From: Legionella genomosp. 1
Lineage (GTDB): Bacteria; Pseudomonadota; Gammaproteobacteria; Legionellales; Legionellaceae
NCBI GenBank assembly: GCA_945867185.1
Contig: CAMBHM010000017.1
Span: forward strand, 1-13,313
Direction of reading: 5' to 3'
DNA length: 13,313 bases
Part shown: in pieces, positions 157-6,691 of the stretch
Position numbering within the stretch: the first letter of the stretch is position 1
Layout: each line of letters begins with the position of its first letter
Notes under the pieces: model-generated
Seen by the model: the letters and a program-made list of their open reading frames with translations, nothing else
Told to the model about the DNA's origin: nothing
The model's database searches: none
Made by a program: the position numbers and the translations under genes

Positions 157-1287
157 TCAAAAATCTAATCGCTCACGTAGTAAGTGCTTTATGATAGGAT
201 TAATAATTTGATAGCCTGCTTCATTTTTTTCAACAATGTCTTTTTCAACCAACCCAGTCATGGCGCTTGAGACTGAGCTTAGTGCCATGCCCATGGTGCT
301 GATTGAGGATGCTGACATTAGATTTCCACCAGAGTTGTTAGCAACAAATTTCAATACTTTTCTCTGCCCCATTGAAAGATGTGTTATCTCAGCATTGGCA
401 TCACTGTACTCTTCTTCTACAACTTGAATCCAGGCATTTGTTACATCCATCATTTTCGGCATACATTTGCTATTAGCCCATAGCACGTCACACAAATAAT
501 TCACGTAATAAGGATGCCGCTCTGACAAGAGCATGATGCGCATGAAAACATCTTCCTCCAGCAAACGTCCCCAAGCCAGCCTGGCTGATTTATTTAAATG
601 TGCTTCATAATGTTCGGCAGATATGCGTTCGAGGTGAAGTTTTCTACAGATCTTGTAAAGTGGCCTACGTTGATCATCAAACATAGACCGTAATAAACTT
701 CTATTACTCCCGGAAAATACAATCGCTAAATGCCGCATATCTTGTGCCATATTTCTGATGGCGGCCTCTACCCCGCTGCTTTTAGAAATCAATCCCACCG
801 TTTGAAATTCGTCCATCAATACTATCGCGCGTCGATTTTTAGTTTCAAGTAATTTTTCAATTAATCCAAGGGTTTCTTGCACGTTAGCCGCGGGATTATT
901 TTGTGTGCCGACAGCTAGCTCTAAATGAGCATATTCTGTCCCAATATTTATTTTAGGGATTAAATGACGTGCAAAATTTTTGATAGTCTCTATGCTTTTT
1001 TCAATTGGCCCAATGGCTTTGCCAATCAAATGACAAATGCCCTGCCTAATCAAAAAGTCCACATCATGCTCATCAGAGCACGTATTAAAGTTTAAACTTA
1101 CTACCGGAACATGACATATCTCAATAGCCTTTTCTGCCAAACTTGATTTTCCAAATCGTCTCGGTGCAATTAAAAGCGAGTGCTTACAAACTGTAATATT
1201 ATCAACCAGCCACTCTGTTTCTATGGTTCTATTACAAAAAGCCTCTCCATGCGCTTTTCCCAGTGGAAAGTAGTCTCTTGCTTTCAA
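157..1287 (-). CDS. Archaeal-type AAA+ ATPase (COG1672-like ATP-binding protein)
   Basis: 376 residues. The N-terminus has the family-typical YFPLGKAHGEAFCNR block (residues 6-20). Next come a Walker A/P-loop variant, APRRFGKSS (41-49, Lys47), a Walker B with hydrophobic strand and acidic pair, IVLMDEF (155-161), and a sensor-like segment, FSGSNRSLL (191-199). Residues from about 303 to the end are likely a winged-helix domain. This matches the predicted ATPases of the archaeal AAA+ superfamily, about 370-390 residues long, found sporadically in bacteria; their cellular role is not established. The start is TTG (1285-1287): an in-frame TGA lies five codons upstream, no ATG intervenes, and the conserved N-terminal block begins directly after it. 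Base composition is more AT-rich than in the envelope genes, and the gene stands alone beside a repeat, both consistent with horizontal gain. Confidence 0.8.
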   Translation of the reverse strand: MKARDYFPLGKAHGEAFCNRTIETEWLVDNITVCKHSLLIAPRRFGKSSLAEKAIEICHVPVVSLNFNTCSDEHDVDFLIRQGICHLIGKAIGPIEKSIETIKNFARHLIPKINIGTEYAHLELAVGTQNNPAANVQETLGLIEKLLETKNRRAIVLMDEFQTVGLISKSSGVEAAIRNMAQDMRHLAIVFSGSNRSLLRSMFDDQRRPLYKICRKLHLERISAEHYEAHLNKSARLAWGRLLEEDVFMRIMLLSERHPYYVNYLCDVLWANSKCMPKMMDVTNAWIQVVEEEYSDANAEITHLSMGQRKVLKFVANNSGGNLMSASSISTMGMALSSVSSAMTGLVEKDIVEKNEAGYQIINPIIKHLLRERLDF

Positions 1288-1686: not shown

Positions 1687-3939
1687 ATGGGGAAAGTAAT
1701 GCCTGGAACAATAACAGCTTTGGTCTTACGCGCTCAACATTTACTTGATTCCACCAGCGTTATTACTGAAGAAAAAATAAGAAGCCTAAGTGCTCTGTGT
1801 GAGGCATTGGGGACTCTGGTAAGCAGTCCGCAACTACCGAGATCCATCTTGGATCTTGCTGTTATTTTTACTCATGAATCGAAAGGAAACAGGGATGTCC
1901 TAACGTTTCCACACGTACCCTGCGTAGCGGATCTATGGCACAAACATCATGAAATAGCTTGCAGACAGACGACCGTTGGAAACATTTTAGAAGCGTTAGC
2001 AAGACTACCCGATGCACAATCCGGCTCTCTCACGTTCTCCAAACTAATTTTAGGATATGTCGCAGAAGTATCCTTGGCTATTGCGAACATGCACAACACA
2101 CGCGATGCTACAATGCAATACCAAGCTTTTGAATATTTAGATCGGGTATTAAGACTAGTCCTCACCCCCACACACTCAGGCTACTTAACCGATGAAACCA
2201 GGCAAGCCCTTCAACATATTCAAAATCATGCAATCAGAAACTATCTAAACAGCTCGGAGCCACTTTCTGATGAAATCACGCACGCACTAGCAGCCTGTAC
2301 TCAAACCACCCAAGAACTCAGTCGATGTTTAATCAGACTGACCTTTGTACTGTCTGCCGCAGGCAATACTCATAAAGACGTTTTGCCTAAAGCCGCAGAA
2401 AGCACCAAAACATTTCTTGCTGCCCTGTCCGATAATCCATTCACACCGTTCTTAACCAATGCACTGGATTTTCTATCACAAATTGAAAGTCAAGATGAAC
2501 GATATTTTAACTCGGAACCCCTAGCATTACCTGACTCCAGCGACATACAGATCTTCATTAGGAGCTGTATCGATAGATTCGTAGAAAGTTCTTTTCCTCA
2601 AATAAACTACTTGTTGTTACAAGCAAGAGATGAAAGCAAAGGAGTCGTCTGGGTTACAAGTAAACATACGGCAGAAATTGATCACGCTAGTCAAGTACTG
2701 TGCAAGCTGACGCAGTGGGTCCAGTTATTCTTATTCGTGGCTCATAAAGCACGCTTCTTAGATTTGATCGTCAGGATTCAAGGCCAACAGATCTTTCTCA
2801 ATCAAGCAGAAGCCCACATGTTAAAACAATTTTTATCTGCCTTAACTGGCAGTACATTAGAACTAGGTAGATGGGCTACTCAATTAGATAGATCATTTCA
2901 CGATCTCAGACGCTCCCCCAGAAAATTCGTCGACCATGAACATGATGTGTTACACCAGCTCGAGCAGATCTGTAGGCATATAAACACGATACACCAACAA
3001 GCCATCGTCCCCTTACAAGGCATTGATCAGCTATTGCCTAAGCTGATGGCCGTGCATGACCGAATGATGCAGAGCCATTTTGAAGAAATGAAAACAATAA
3101 AAAGATTGGCCTCAAGAGGGAATCAGGCCCTTGATCAATTTGTTTGTTTTCTAGATAGCGGACTGCTCTCTGATACGACGAGAGTCACACAAGGCACGGC
3201 ACTGGCTCTTGAGGACGCTTCCCCTGCACTGACAGTTGCCACCCGCCGCAAGCAGCCCCCTTCTTTTACTAGAAAAGAACCCCTAAAAAACACAAGCTTG
3301 TGGACATGGTTCCTCGGTATAACCATCCTATCTATTCTCACTTTAGGCATTCTCTTTGCAGCTGAAACCATCGCCTTACCTGCCACTTTTTTAGCATTTG
3401 GTCTAGTCGGCGGTGGGTTTCTACTCGCAACCATCATCACAGGCTGCTTATGGATTGCAGGATTCGCCTTCAATCACTATTTCTCAAAAAGTACCCCTGC
3501 ACTGCCGAGATCTCCGTCTTCCCATTCGGTCATGGTCCAACAATTAAGCCTATCTCCCCGCCCCCCGCCGGCTCCTCAACCGGTATCTATTGCAGCCCCA
3601 AGCCCCCCCCCTATGGCACAACAACCAACAGAGCCTCTTACTGCTACTGGTGTTGCAGGCTGCACGACAGCACCAACACCCGTTGAATCGTCTCTAGCAG
3701 TAAAATTACGAGCATGTTTTCTAGATGCACAAAGAAAACGCACCTTCTCGACGACTGAGAAAATACAACTTCATTTAGAAACTTGGGCCGCTTTTTACAC
3801 ACAACCCCTCGCTGAAATAGCACTCACCCTCCTCACACTCCACGACGAGAAGCAGATTCAACTCAGCCCCGAGGCTGAACGCTATCTTTTAAATGATGCA
3901 TTAAACACGACGCGCCGACGGCGCATTACACTTGCTTAG
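1687..3939 (+). CDS. Unrecognised 750-residue membrane protein with proline-rich linker
   Basis: No family is recognised. Residues 1-530 are predicted mostly alpha-helical, without a signal peptide or clear catalytic motif. Two hydrophobic segments follow (about 539-561 and 567-595), separated by a short turn and suggesting a membrane hairpin. A linker of about 605-665 is rich in proline, serine and alanine (PRPPPAP and SPPP are examples). A helical C-terminal domain (about 667-740) ends in a TTRRRR cluster. This layout puts the large N-domain and the small C-domain on the same side of the membrane, most simply the cytoplasm. The start is uncertain: ATG 1687 has no Shine-Dalgarno, while ATG 1699 (residue 5) has purine-rich GGGGAAAG just upstream. 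It lies 13 nt before the PEPC-like gene, so the two are probably cotranscribed. The long helical build resembles secreted effectors of Legionellales, but no secretion signal is demonstrated. Confidence 0.8.
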   Translation: MGKVMPGTITALVLRAQHLLDSTSVITEEKIRSLSALCEALGTLVSSPQLPRSILDLAVIFTHESKGNRDVLTFPHVPCVADLWHKHHEIACRQTTVGNILEALARLPDAQSGSLTFSKLILGYVAEVSLAIANMHNTRDATMQYQAFEYLDRVLRLVLTPTHSGYLTDETRQALQHIQNHAIRNYLNSSEPLSDEITHALAACTQTTQELSRCLIRLTFVLSAAGNTHKDVLPKAAESTKTFLAALSDNPFTPFLTNALDFLSQIESQDERYFNSEPLALPDSSDIQIFIRSCIDRFVESSFPQINYLLLQARDESKGVVWVTSKHTAEIDHASQVLCKLTQWVQLFLFVAHKARFLDLIVRIQGQQIFLNQAEAHMLKQFLSALTGSTLELGRWATQLDRSFHDLRRSPRKFVDHEHDVLHQLEQICRHINTIHQQAIVPLQGIDQLLPKLMAVHDRMMQSHFEEMKTIKRLASRGNQALDQFVCFLDSGLLSDTTRVTQGTALALEDASPALTVATRRKQPPSFTRKEPLKNTSLWTWFLGITILSILTLGILFAAETIALPATFLAFGLVGGGFLLATIITGCLWIAGFAFNHYFSKSTPALPRSPSSHSVMVQQLSLSPRPPPAPQPVSIAAPSPPPMAQQPTEPLTATGVAGCTTAPTPVESSLAVKLRACFLDAQRKRTFSTTEKIQLHLETWAAFYTQPLAEIALTLLTLHDEKQIQLSPEAERYLLNDALNTTRRRRITLA
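3603..3611 (+). repeat. C9 homopolymer within the proline-rich linker
   Basis: Nine consecutive C encode part of Ser-Pro-Pro-Pro in the linker. Gain of one C would shift reading into a frame that stops at 3684-3686 and would remove the C-terminal domain. Tracts of this length can slip during replication, and can also be sequencing errors. Confidence 0.8.
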
Positions 3940-3942
3940 AAA

Positions 3943-3948
3943 TAAGGA
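3943..3948 (+). promoter_or_regulatory. Ribosome binding site setting the start of the PEPC-like gene
   Basis: TAAGGA lies 4 nt before ATG 3953. This supports ATG 3953 over an in-frame TTG at 3932, which would overlap the previous gene by 8 nt and has no comparable site. Confidence 0.7.
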
Positions 3949-3952
3949 TTTC

Positions 3953-6691
3953 ATGACGCACCTCATCACCAGACTATTTACAACAGCCACGCGTGCCCTT
4001 GCAACATCAACCCAACCACTGCCCTTGACACGATTATCACATTTTCCAACCAAGGTACAACATGAGGCAGCGCATCTCTTGACTATAGCTTCCAAGGCGG
4101 CCGCTACCCAGGGAATACAAGCTCCCTTTGCCACAGCACAAGCATGGCTATTAGATTCGGAGTTTTTTAAAAATCCTCCTCAAAAAATAGCTTCCAAAGC
4201 GACTTATCGGGCCTATGCCTCTTTAAGTTACCTGATGAATCTCGTCATACAGCGTTATTACGAAGGGATCATCAATACAAAAGCCGCCTCACTCACAAAG
4301 ATCACTCAAACTGTCATCGCGCCCGTTCTAACCCGTCACCCTTGTTGTCCTACACCAGAAGTATATCCCTTGTTAGGTCAACTGATGGGTTGTATCGAAC
4401 AAAAGCGCTGGGAGGATGCAGAGCCCCTCATTCATGCGCTACTAAAATTTGACTCAAGCATTCCAAACATGACTTTGCAACGCGAGATTCAACTCAATCT
4501 ACCTTTAATTGAACACCTGCTTGGTGCAGGCGTGCAATATGAAATCACCCATAACCTGCTGCCCCGTTCTGTGATTCGTCCACAAAATTGGGGAGGGTAT
4601 GATGGTGATCGCACCCCCGTTACAGCGGAAGTAGTATTGGCTACAAAAATAATAGAAACGCAATACGCGTTACAGCTCTATCAAAAACACTGCACCCAGA
4701 TGCTCTCGGAAGAGCGCTTGCCGAGCAGCTTTAAACACTATCTCGTGTCTTTACAAAAAATACTATCAGAAACAGAAACCACTTTTAAACCCGTTTGGCG
4801 ATTGGTGAAAACCAAAGCCATCATTTATGCCCAAGCTTTTGCCCCCGGGGAGCCCCTGCTGCGTCATACTGTCCATCAATTTTTTATTGATGGATCCGCC
4901 TCCATCCCCACCTTTATAGAAGGGACTGACGAACTATTTCGCAGTTGGGGTAGAACATTGTCAACCGATCCAACACTGGCCTGTCATCAACTGGATCAAG
5001 AGATTAAAACCATCTTTCAACTTGTTTTCTCAAAGAAAAAAGCCTGTTTACAAGGGATTCAAATTCTACAAAGAGAAGCGGCAAAATCAGATGTCCCGCT
5101 CACTACAAAAAGATCCACCCAAACCCTCTATCATCTCTTTCAAAATGCGGGGTTCCATCTCACAGAAGGCCAAGGCCGATTAGGTAGCGAAGCCATCCTC
5201 CCGGCTTGTCATGAACTGATGGAGCAGGATGGATTCTCAGCCATTGATGATTTCGAAGACTCATTCTTCCATGCTATTGATGTCTATGCAGAAAGACCCC
5301 TTTGCACTCTAGAAGAGTTGTCCAAATGTTCTGGTGATACGCAAACAGTCATTAAATATTTTCAAAGTATGACCTTTCTAAACAGCATCGATTCACGCAA
5401 TATGCCCTATCTTATTCTTGCAAATTTCACCGGCCCGAGCTGTTTTTTAAGTGCTTTTTACTTGGCCGTCCGAATGGGATTGATCACCGTACGGAAAAAC
5501 AAAGTGGTTGACAGTCACATCGTTTTAGTTCCGCTTGCTGAAAGGCCCGAGGATCATTTCCAGATGGCTACCTGGTTTGACACCTTATGTAGCCACCCCC
5601 TCATTAAATCTTACTATGCTTGTACCATGGAATGGGTATGGATGACGGCTTTTAGTGATACACCGCGAGAGCGAGGAATGATGGAGGCCTTAGTTAGTAT
5701 TGAAGTGGCCACCCATGAAGTCCATGACGTATTCAAACGACAATTCCCCGATCTCTTCCGAATGATGTTATATCGTCATCAATTAGGACGTGGATCAAGT
5801 GGGCTTCGTTCCGGAGAATTAGGCATCGACTTGATCACAAGACGACATCCTGTCGCTCATACTGTGCTCTCAAGAACATTGCAGTCCGGTGAATCCGATG
5901 ATGCTTTCTCAACTCCAGAACGGGCAAGCATTTGGCTAGAGCAAGAACTAAAGCTCCCAAAAACCTATGCACCCTATGATAAAAAATGGATGTGTTTTTT
6001 ACGTCAGTTTACAAAACCAGGCGCCGACGCCTTTGAAAAAATAATGACCGATCCAACAGGTCGAATGAATCAATTTTTAATCAAGTTAAATGAAACCGAT
6101 TATGTCATCAATCACTCACCCATGGGATCACGTAAGAACCCCCCGATGAGTCTATTTCAATTGCCCACAGCACTCATTGTGGGCCAACGCATGATAAGCA
6201 TTGTAAGATTGCTTGCAAATGAACTCCATCTATATGTGCATGCCTTTATTCCTCTTGTTCATTCCATGCAAGTCTATTTACAAAACGGCGGGCAACTGTC
6301 TGAGCTACAACGTTGTTATCATGAACATGTGTTTTTTCAACGACTGGTGAGCAAACTGGAAGAACTACTCTACTTCTCCAATGAAACGGCTCTACAGCAC
6401 TATCGCGAGCTGGATCCCGAGTTGGTAGATGAATTGATTCAACAGACTCACCTGGCAAAAGAGTATGTTTTAACCATTTCAGGACAAACTCGGTTATTGG
6501 AAAAACGTCCCGAACTGGAGCTCATCTGGACTTGGCGAAACGAACAGGCTGCCCGTGCGGCTATTTTAAAAAGAACATTATATCCTAAGGCAGGACTCTT
6601 TAATCTGCACGCACCCAGTGCTGAAGAGCGCCGCATTAGAACAGACATTCAACACGTCGACGGACCCTCCCTGTTTGGACGGTATGCATAA
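3953..6691 (+). CDS. Strongly diverged phosphoenolpyruvate carboxylase-like protein, possible pseudoenzyme
   Basis: 912 residues (bacterial PEPC about 880). True PEPC joins bicarbonate to phosphoenolpyruvate to give oxaloacetate. Landmarks occur in PEPC order. VLTRHPCC (His129) stands where VLTAHPTE is expected. GGYDGDRTPVTAEV (214-227) replaces GGDRDGNPxVTxEV. GFHL with Arg409 and Ser412 fits the GFHLAxLDxRQxS block. YLILANF...RMGLI (486-511) fits YIISMA...KEAGL. PLAE (Glu530) fits PLFET. FSDTPRERG (Asp569, Arg572) fits YSDSxKDxG. HQLGRGSSGLRSG (609-621; Arg613, Arg619) fits HGRGGTVGRGG. GSR (Arg727), SL..LP and GQ fit the GSRPAKR...SLRAIP...TQ block. FFQRL..KLEELL and VLTIxG...WRN (Arg862) fit the C-terminal helices. 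By this reading the metal ligands (Glu506, Asp543 in E. coli) are kept, while Lys546 is Arg, Arg713 is Phe, and the Asp-inhibitor contacts Lys773 and Asn881 are lost. Homology is likely; carboxylase activity is doubtful. It shares an operon with the preceding membrane protein gene. Confidence 0.72.
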   Translation: MTHLITRLFTTATRALATSTQPLPLTRLSHFPTKVQHEAAHLLTIASKAAATQGIQAPFATAQAWLLDSEFFKNPPQKIASKATYRAYASLSYLMNLVIQRYYEGIINTKAASLTKITQTVIAPVLTRHPCCPTPEVYPLLGQLMGCIEQKRWEDAEPLIHALLKFDSSIPNMTLQREIQLNLPLIEHLLGAGVQYEITHNLLPRSVIRPQNWGGYDGDRTPVTAEVVLATKIIETQYALQLYQKHCTQMLSEERLPSSFKHYLVSLQKILSETETTFKPVWRLVKTKAIIYAQAFAPGEPLLRHTVHQFFIDGSASIPTFIEGTDELFRSWGRTLSTDPTLACHQLDQEIKTIFQLVFSKKKACLQGIQILQREAAKSDVPLTTKRSTQTLYHLFQNAGFHLTEGQGRLGSEAILPACHELMEQDGFSAIDDFEDSFFHAIDVYAERPLCTLEELSKCSGDTQTVIKYFQSMTFLNSIDSRNMPYLILANFTGPSCFLSAFYLAVRMGLITVRKNKVVDSHIVLVPLAERPEDHFQMATWFDTLCSHPLIKSYYACTMEWVWMTAFSDTPRERGMMEALVSIEVATHEVHDVFKRQFPDLFRMMLYRHQLGRGSSGLRSGELGIDLITRRHPVAHTVLSRTLQSGESDDAFSTPERASIWLEQELKLPKTYAPYDKKWMCFLRQFTKPGADAFEKIMTDPTGRMNQFLIKLNETDYVINHSPMGSRKNPPMSLFQLPTALIVGQRMISIVRLLANELHLYVHAFIPLVHSMQVYLQNGGQLSELQRCYHEHVFFQRLVSKLEELLYFSNETALQHYRELDPELVDELIQQTHLAKEYVLTISGQTRLLEKRPELELIWTWRNEQAARAAILKRTLYPKAGLFNLHAPSAEERRIRTDIQHVDGPSLFGRYA

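What the first reader, a model, noticed from the sequence alone, without database searches (positions are those of the whole stretch)
3953..6691. A PEPC-fold protein with rewritten active-site signatures
About ten blocks match phosphoenolpyruvate carboxylase in order and at similar spacing. From the E. coli Glu506/Asp543/Arg581/Arg587/Arg699 series, the counterparts here would be Glu530/Asp569/Arg613/Arg619/Arg727. Yet nearly every textbook signature is altered: AHPTE to RHPCC, GGDRDGNP to GGYDGDRTP, YSDSxKD to FSDTPRE, FHGRGG to HQLGRG, and SLRAIP to SLFQLP. The C-terminal NTG end and the Lys773 equivalent, used for aspartate inhibition, are missing. Retained metal ligands with changed bicarbonate/PEP contacts suggest either a new substrate or a regulatory pseudoenzyme, and not simple decay, since the 912-codon frame is intact.
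Basis: partly seen in the sequence, partly recalled or inferred. Interest (0 to 1): 0.8.

Follow-up and report, generated by a model that had tools for sequence, protein, structure and literature searches.

The report
Divergent PEPC-family protein in a Legionellaceae
A bacterium related to Legionella carries a very divergent relative of the enzyme PEP carboxylase that still seems to have most of the catalytic residues, and a family of similar odd relatives in its kin often starts with a stretch resembling a mitochondrial import signal.

Summary

The protein is an orphan. Kin genera hold a separate PEPC-like clade, labelled Legionellaceae or Legionella wherever a family or genus is named. None of 10 genomes with a divergent form has a canonical PEPC match. 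Presequence-like N-termini: 12 of 25 clade proteins and the window's, against 2 of 112 control ORFs and 0 of 24 canonical Legionella PEPCs, by a rule set after looking.

Best reading: a still competent PEPC-type enzyme, possibly host-directed; the latter is inference.

The parts
3953..6691 (+). Divergent PEPC-family protein, 912 aa, ATG start
3943..3948 (+). Shine-Dalgarno-like TAAGGA before the ATG
3953..4063 (+). Residues 1-37: no Asp or Glu, 3 Arg in the first 30; resembles a mitochondrial presequence; low confidence in the model
   Evidence: chance of such an acid-free run from the protein's own composition 0.015
4337..4339 (+). H129 = E. coli His138
   Evidence: 5 of 5 alignments
4586..4618 (+). 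NWGGYDGDRTP = SWMGGDRDGNP region; W213, D217 and D219 kept
5177..5179 (+). R409 = E. coli Arg396
   Evidence: 2 of 5 alignments and the canonical-only profile alignment
5540..5542 (+). E530 = Glu506, metal ligand
   Evidence: 5 of 5 alignments
5657..5668 (+). D569 = Asp543, metal ligand; R572 in place of Lys546
   Evidence: 5 of 5 alignments
5783..5809 (+). L611 (His579), R613 (Arg581), R619 (Arg587) in LGRGSSGLR
   Evidence: ungapped; R613 in 4 of 5, R619 in 1 of 5 alignments
6131..6133 (+). R727 = Arg699
   Evidence: 3 of 5 alignments; model weak here
6188..6190 (+). R746 = Arg713, in GQRMIS, not in SLFQLP
   Evidence: 5 of 5 alignments; model weak here
1687..3939 (+). 750-aa ORF of unknown function ending 13 nt before the PEPC-like ATG; likely same operon; hydrophobic stretch at residues 538-599
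   Evidence: operon and membrane reading inferred by eye

Best explanation
A deep-branching member of the PEPC superfamily that most likely still does PEPC-type chemistry. Inferred mechanism: metal held by E530 and D569, PEP phosphate held by arginines (R409, R613, R746 as paired here), carboxylation of the enolate helped by H129; K546R and H579L suggest weaker substrate binding; without Lys773 and the NTG end, feedback control has probably gone. I think it somewhat more likely than not that it is not the ordinary housekeeping PEPC but one of several divergent forms that Legionellaceae evolved, some possibly sent into the protist host, with the host mitochondrion as a possible target. Shown: homology, fold, kept His138/Glu506/Asp543/Arg713, orphan status. 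Inferred: the other arginines, activity, export, target.
For: Homology. Fold. Kept residues. His138, His579 and Arg587 matter for E. coli PEPC (PMC11832675, passages); Flaveria Arg450 and Arg767 (by recalled offset E. coli 396 and 713) are called essential in a title cited in PMC6363079. A separate clade of 22 database proteins and 8 of 143 genomes keeps His138, Arg396, Glu506, Asp543, Arg587, Arg699 and Arg713 in all 24 rows aligned and Lys546 in 22 of 24. Presequence-like N-termini: clade 12 of 25, window yes, controls 2 of 112, canonical Legionella PEPC 0 of 24. Acidic share 3.8% in the first 30 residues against 11.8% after residue 60 over 26 proteins with the window; no fall in 7 canonical ones. 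In the P0010 model (pLDDT 88.7) only residues 1-23 and 912-923 form stretches below 50, so both tails lie outside the fold. Dot/Icm DotI in 9 of 10 genomes tested, 8 of them with divergent forms; DotC in the own genome in two pieces on two contigs.
Against: His579 is lost. R409, R619 and R727 pair differently in other alignments. R727, R746 and most of the first 117 residues are poorly modelled. DotH and DotI were not found in the own assembly (the DotH search rang in no control). No PmrA- or CpxR-like box beyond chance (consensus recalled). The presequence rule was chosen after seeing the sequences, the rows are related, and 13 of 25 fail it; on the plainer measure 'first acidic residue at 30 or later' it is 6 of 12 divergent proteins against 13 of 111 control ORFs. 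An R-x-[FYLW]-[SA] cleavage motif is not enriched (6 of 26 against 11 of 112, p 0.09). Hydrophobic moment does not separate them from canonical PEPC. The window's C-terminal tail shows no clear acidic block. No pyruvate carboxylase in 11 of 11 genomes, so a housekeeping role is possible.
Confidence: 0.47

Rival explanations
1. Fast-evolving housekeeping PEPC: the anaplerotic enzyme of a reduced, host-associated genome, drifting under relaxed regulation.
For: No other PF00311 and no PYC_OADA found in the own genome; 0 of 10 genomes with a divergent form has a canonical PEPC match while 25 others do; some clade copies share neighbours between genomes (by eye, adenylate kinase and thioredoxin beside the gene in G065 and G067), as for inherited chromosomal genes; canonical Legionella PEPC itself scores only 309 bits against a cut-off of 815.
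Against: 108 of 143 genomes have no PF00311 match, so the order seems able to live without it; two copies each in G004 and G065; presequence-like N-termini; branch length 4.83.
Confidence: 0.31
2. Regulatory pseudoenzyme or enzyme with a new substrate.
For: H579L, K546R, changed HPTE and DRDGN flanks, lost Lys773 and NTG end; several arginine pairings are aligner-dependent.
Against: 8 of 10 catalytic residues kept, above the rate of other invariant positions.
Confidence: 0.17
3. Decaying relic of a once functional PEPC.
For: Very long branch.
Against: Intact 912-codon frame, Shine-Dalgarno-like site, catalytic residues preferentially kept, G+C 45.0% like bamA at 45.1%.
Confidence: 0.05

Closest known systems
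Bacterial/plant-type PEP carboxylase (PF00311; E. coli Ppc, 1jqn/1fiy)
   Different: 15-18% identity; K546R, H579L; Lys773 and the NTG end lost; far below the NCBIfam equivalog cut-off
Legionellaceae PEPC-like clade (P0005-P0026; sources name them 'phosphoenolpyruvate carboxylase', 'hypothetical protein' or nothing)
   Same: Same family of bacteria, about 880-960 aa when full length, low-acid N-terminus in about half, Lys773 lost
   Different: Clade has SGPSDLGK, HGFGGDMKRR and RAIG-type motifs and lacks Arg581 (0 of 24); the window protein has FSDTPRE and keeps Arg581, and is not recovered by the clade profile
Canonical Legionella PEPC (about 771 aa)
   Same: PF00311, same order of motifs
   Different: Ends LTTG, LRAIP intact, Arg581 is Ser in the two rows aligned; not matched in the genomes with divergent forms
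Archaeal-type PEPC (3odm)
   Different: 526-residue chain; weaker match than bacterial-type

Membership tests
PEPC superfamily (PF00311) | Profile match above the curated cut-off | tested here: met
   53.5 against 22.4 bits
PEPC superfamily (PF00311) | PEPC fold | tested here: met
Canonical PEPC orthologue | NCBIfam NF000584 equivalog cut-off | tested here: not met
   54.7 against 815 bits; note that canonical Legionella PEPC scores 309
Canonical PEPC orthologue | Catalytic His138, Arg396, Lys546, His579, Arg581, Arg587, Arg699, Arg713 and metal ligands Glu506, Asp543 (list partly recalled) | tested here: inconclusive
   8 of 10 identical, K546R, H579L; His138, Glu506, Asp543, Arg713 firm in 5 of 5 alignments, four arginines aligner-dependent
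Canonical PEPC orthologue | Aspartate site Lys773, Arg832, Asn881 and NTG end | tested here: not met
   Arg832 aligned, Lys773 and Asn881 lost
Canonical PEPC orthologue | PEP carboxylase activity | not testable with these tools
   needs an enzyme measurement
Legionellaceae PEPC-like clade | Match to the clade profile; placement within the clade | tested here: not met
   own genome not recovered with A4; tree places it outside the 17 clade rows, on a long branch
Dot/Icm effector | Dot/Icm system in the genome | tested here: inconclusive
   DotC in two pieces, DotH and DotI not found in the 76% assembly
Dot/Icm effector | Translocation | not testable with these tools
   last 30 residues hold 4 acidic residues, no clear block
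Mitochondrially imported protein | Basic, acid-free, cleavable presequence | tested here: inconclusive
   first acidic residue at 38, 3 Arg in the first 30, RALA at 14; no trained predictor available

The most novel reading that the evidence does not exclude
Legionellaceae have repeatedly turned PEP carboxylase into a host-directed enzyme that carries an N-terminal mitochondrial presequence and would make oxaloacetate from PEP inside the protist's mitochondrion, free of feedback inhibition; the window protein is one independent, extreme case.
Probability: 0.25. Interest if true: 0.8.

Novelty: new variant of a known kind. Interest (0 to 1): 0.5.

Why it matters
If the N-termini work as presequences, this would be an enzyme family of central metabolism sent to mitochondria by bacteria. 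An eLife 2022 paper (PMC8820735, passages) says of the mitochondria-targeted Legionella effectors it discusses that none has a discernible canonical targeting sequence. Even without that, the window protein shows which PEPC letters can change (HPTE tail, DRDGN, His579, Lys546, NTG end) while metal ligands, His138 and Arg713 stay. It also warns that 'phosphoenolpyruvate carboxylase' labels in Legionellaceae cover very different forms.

Tried and rejected
phmmer of the window protein against PDB sequences: no match at E up to 1. Viral contigs: none. PmrA- and CpxR-like boxes: not above chance. Presequence cleavage motif: not enriched. Hydrophobic moment: not discriminating. Pyruvate carboxylase: none in 11 of 11. 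Sister relation of the window protein to the 1227-aa protein of G005: weak support (81/69) between two long branches, not claimed. Literature, open-licence PMC only: searches (1 of 1 listed; 2 of 2; 0; 12 of 29; 8 of 32; 5 of 9; 8 of 1,888, the terms too loose; 10 of 369; 1 of 1) listed no paper on a PEPC-like Legionella effector. I read only passages of four papers. The L. pneumophila effector atlas PMC11696984 has no 'phosphoenolpyruvate' or 'carboxylase' in its main text. This does not show absence from print elsewhere.

Rows dropped: P0024-P0026 (fragments) from the N-terminal counts and from the alignment; P0022 (C-truncated) and P0002 (N-truncated) from the alignment; L042 from the 24 canonical N-termini. 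The tree used 28 of the 35 rows. Several N-termini rest on database or first-ATG start codons (P0006, P0007, P0011 may differ). Control ORFs were first-ATG frames of 150 aa or more in fetched loci (200); some may not be genes.

Full report
WHAT IS THERE. The window is contig 17 of a 1.446-Mb, 207-contig assembly estimated 76% complete. The gene at 3953-6691 is an intact 912-codon frame with TAAGGA before the ATG. It follows a 750-aa ORF by 13 nt and faces bamA, rseP, cdsA and uppS on the other strand. G+C is 45.0%, like bamA.

ACTIVE SITE. In an L-INS-i alignment of 35 proteins the ten catalytic positions of E. coli PEPC read: His138=H129, Arg396=R409, Glu506=E530, Asp543=D569, Lys546=R572, His579=L611, Arg581=R613, Arg587=R619, Arg699=R727, Arg713=R746. 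Eight of ten are identical; of 103 other positions invariant in the 7 canonical sequences 37 are kept (one-sided p 0.009). Five alignments compared agree on H129, E530, D569, R572 and R746; four on R613; three on R727; two, plus the canonical-only profile alignment, on R409; only one search gives R619, though LGRGSSGLR pairs ungapped with HGRGGSIGR there. The offset to E. coli numbering is recalled. R727 and R746 lie in a stretch with pLDDT under 50.

TERMINI. Many clade N-termini look like mitochondrial presequences. With a rule (first acidic residue at 25 or later, at least 3 basic residues in 30, no strong hydrophobic segment) 12 of 25 clade proteins and the window protein pass, 2 of 112 neighbouring ORFs and 0 of 24 canonical Legionella PEPCs pass. 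The rule was made after I had seen the sequences and the rows are related, so the p-value of 7e-9 is only descriptive. On the plainer measure of a first acidic residue at 30 or later it is 6 of 12 divergent proteins against 13 of 111 controls, many of which look like membrane or secreted proteins. Acidic residues fall from 11.8% to 3.8% in the first 30 residues over 26 proteins; 7 canonical PEPCs show no fall. In the P0010 model the first 23 and last 12 residues are outside the fold. Against this: no enrichment of a cleavage motif, 13 of 25 fail, and hydrophobic moment does not discriminate.

EXPORT. DotI is present in 9 of 10 genomes tested (8 with divergent forms, G014 with the canonical; G067 not tested) and not found in the own assembly. 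DotH was not found there either (a search without any positive control), but DotC was, in two pieces on two contigs. So a Dot/Icm system is likely but not shown complete. No regulatory box was found.

VERDICT. A real, extreme member of a known enzyme superfamily. The 'rewritten signature' is largely rewriting around a kept core, which leans towards an active PEPC-type enzyme rather than a pseudoenzyme. The more interesting pattern is family-wide: some Legionellaceae hold divergent PEPCs and no canonical one, about half with presequence-like N-termini. Whether they serve the bacterium's own carbon metabolism (no pyruvate carboxylase in 11 of 11 genomes) or act in the host is open.

Noticed in passing
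window 1687-3939 (+): 750-aa ORF in apparent operon with the PEPC-like gene; no Pfam family over its cut-off; relatives at 23-30% identity in 3 of 56 other Legionellaceae genomes searched, in G007 on two contigs, none with a PF00311 match.
   Followed up: partly
window 157-1287 (-): 376-aa protein with an AAA_14 match (28.1 against 27 bits), divergently oriented to the operon.
   Followed up: no
L051 1649-5329 (+): A third divergent PEPC form of 1227 aa in G005, with FSDTERVSG and HGPGGDRNRGG and an acidic N-terminus.
   Followed up: partly
L003 493-2811 (+): Canonical Legionella PEPC has Ser in place of Arg581 in the two rows aligned, and L003's scores 309 bits against an NCBIfam cut-off of 815.
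   Followed up: no
L052 (G065) and L055/L056 (G004): Two copies of the PEPC-like gene per genome, side by side in G065.
   Followed up: no
143 Legionellales genomes: 108 of 143 have no PF00311 match and 11 of 11 tested have no PYC_OADA match, so how they refill oxaloacetate is unclear.
   Followed up: no
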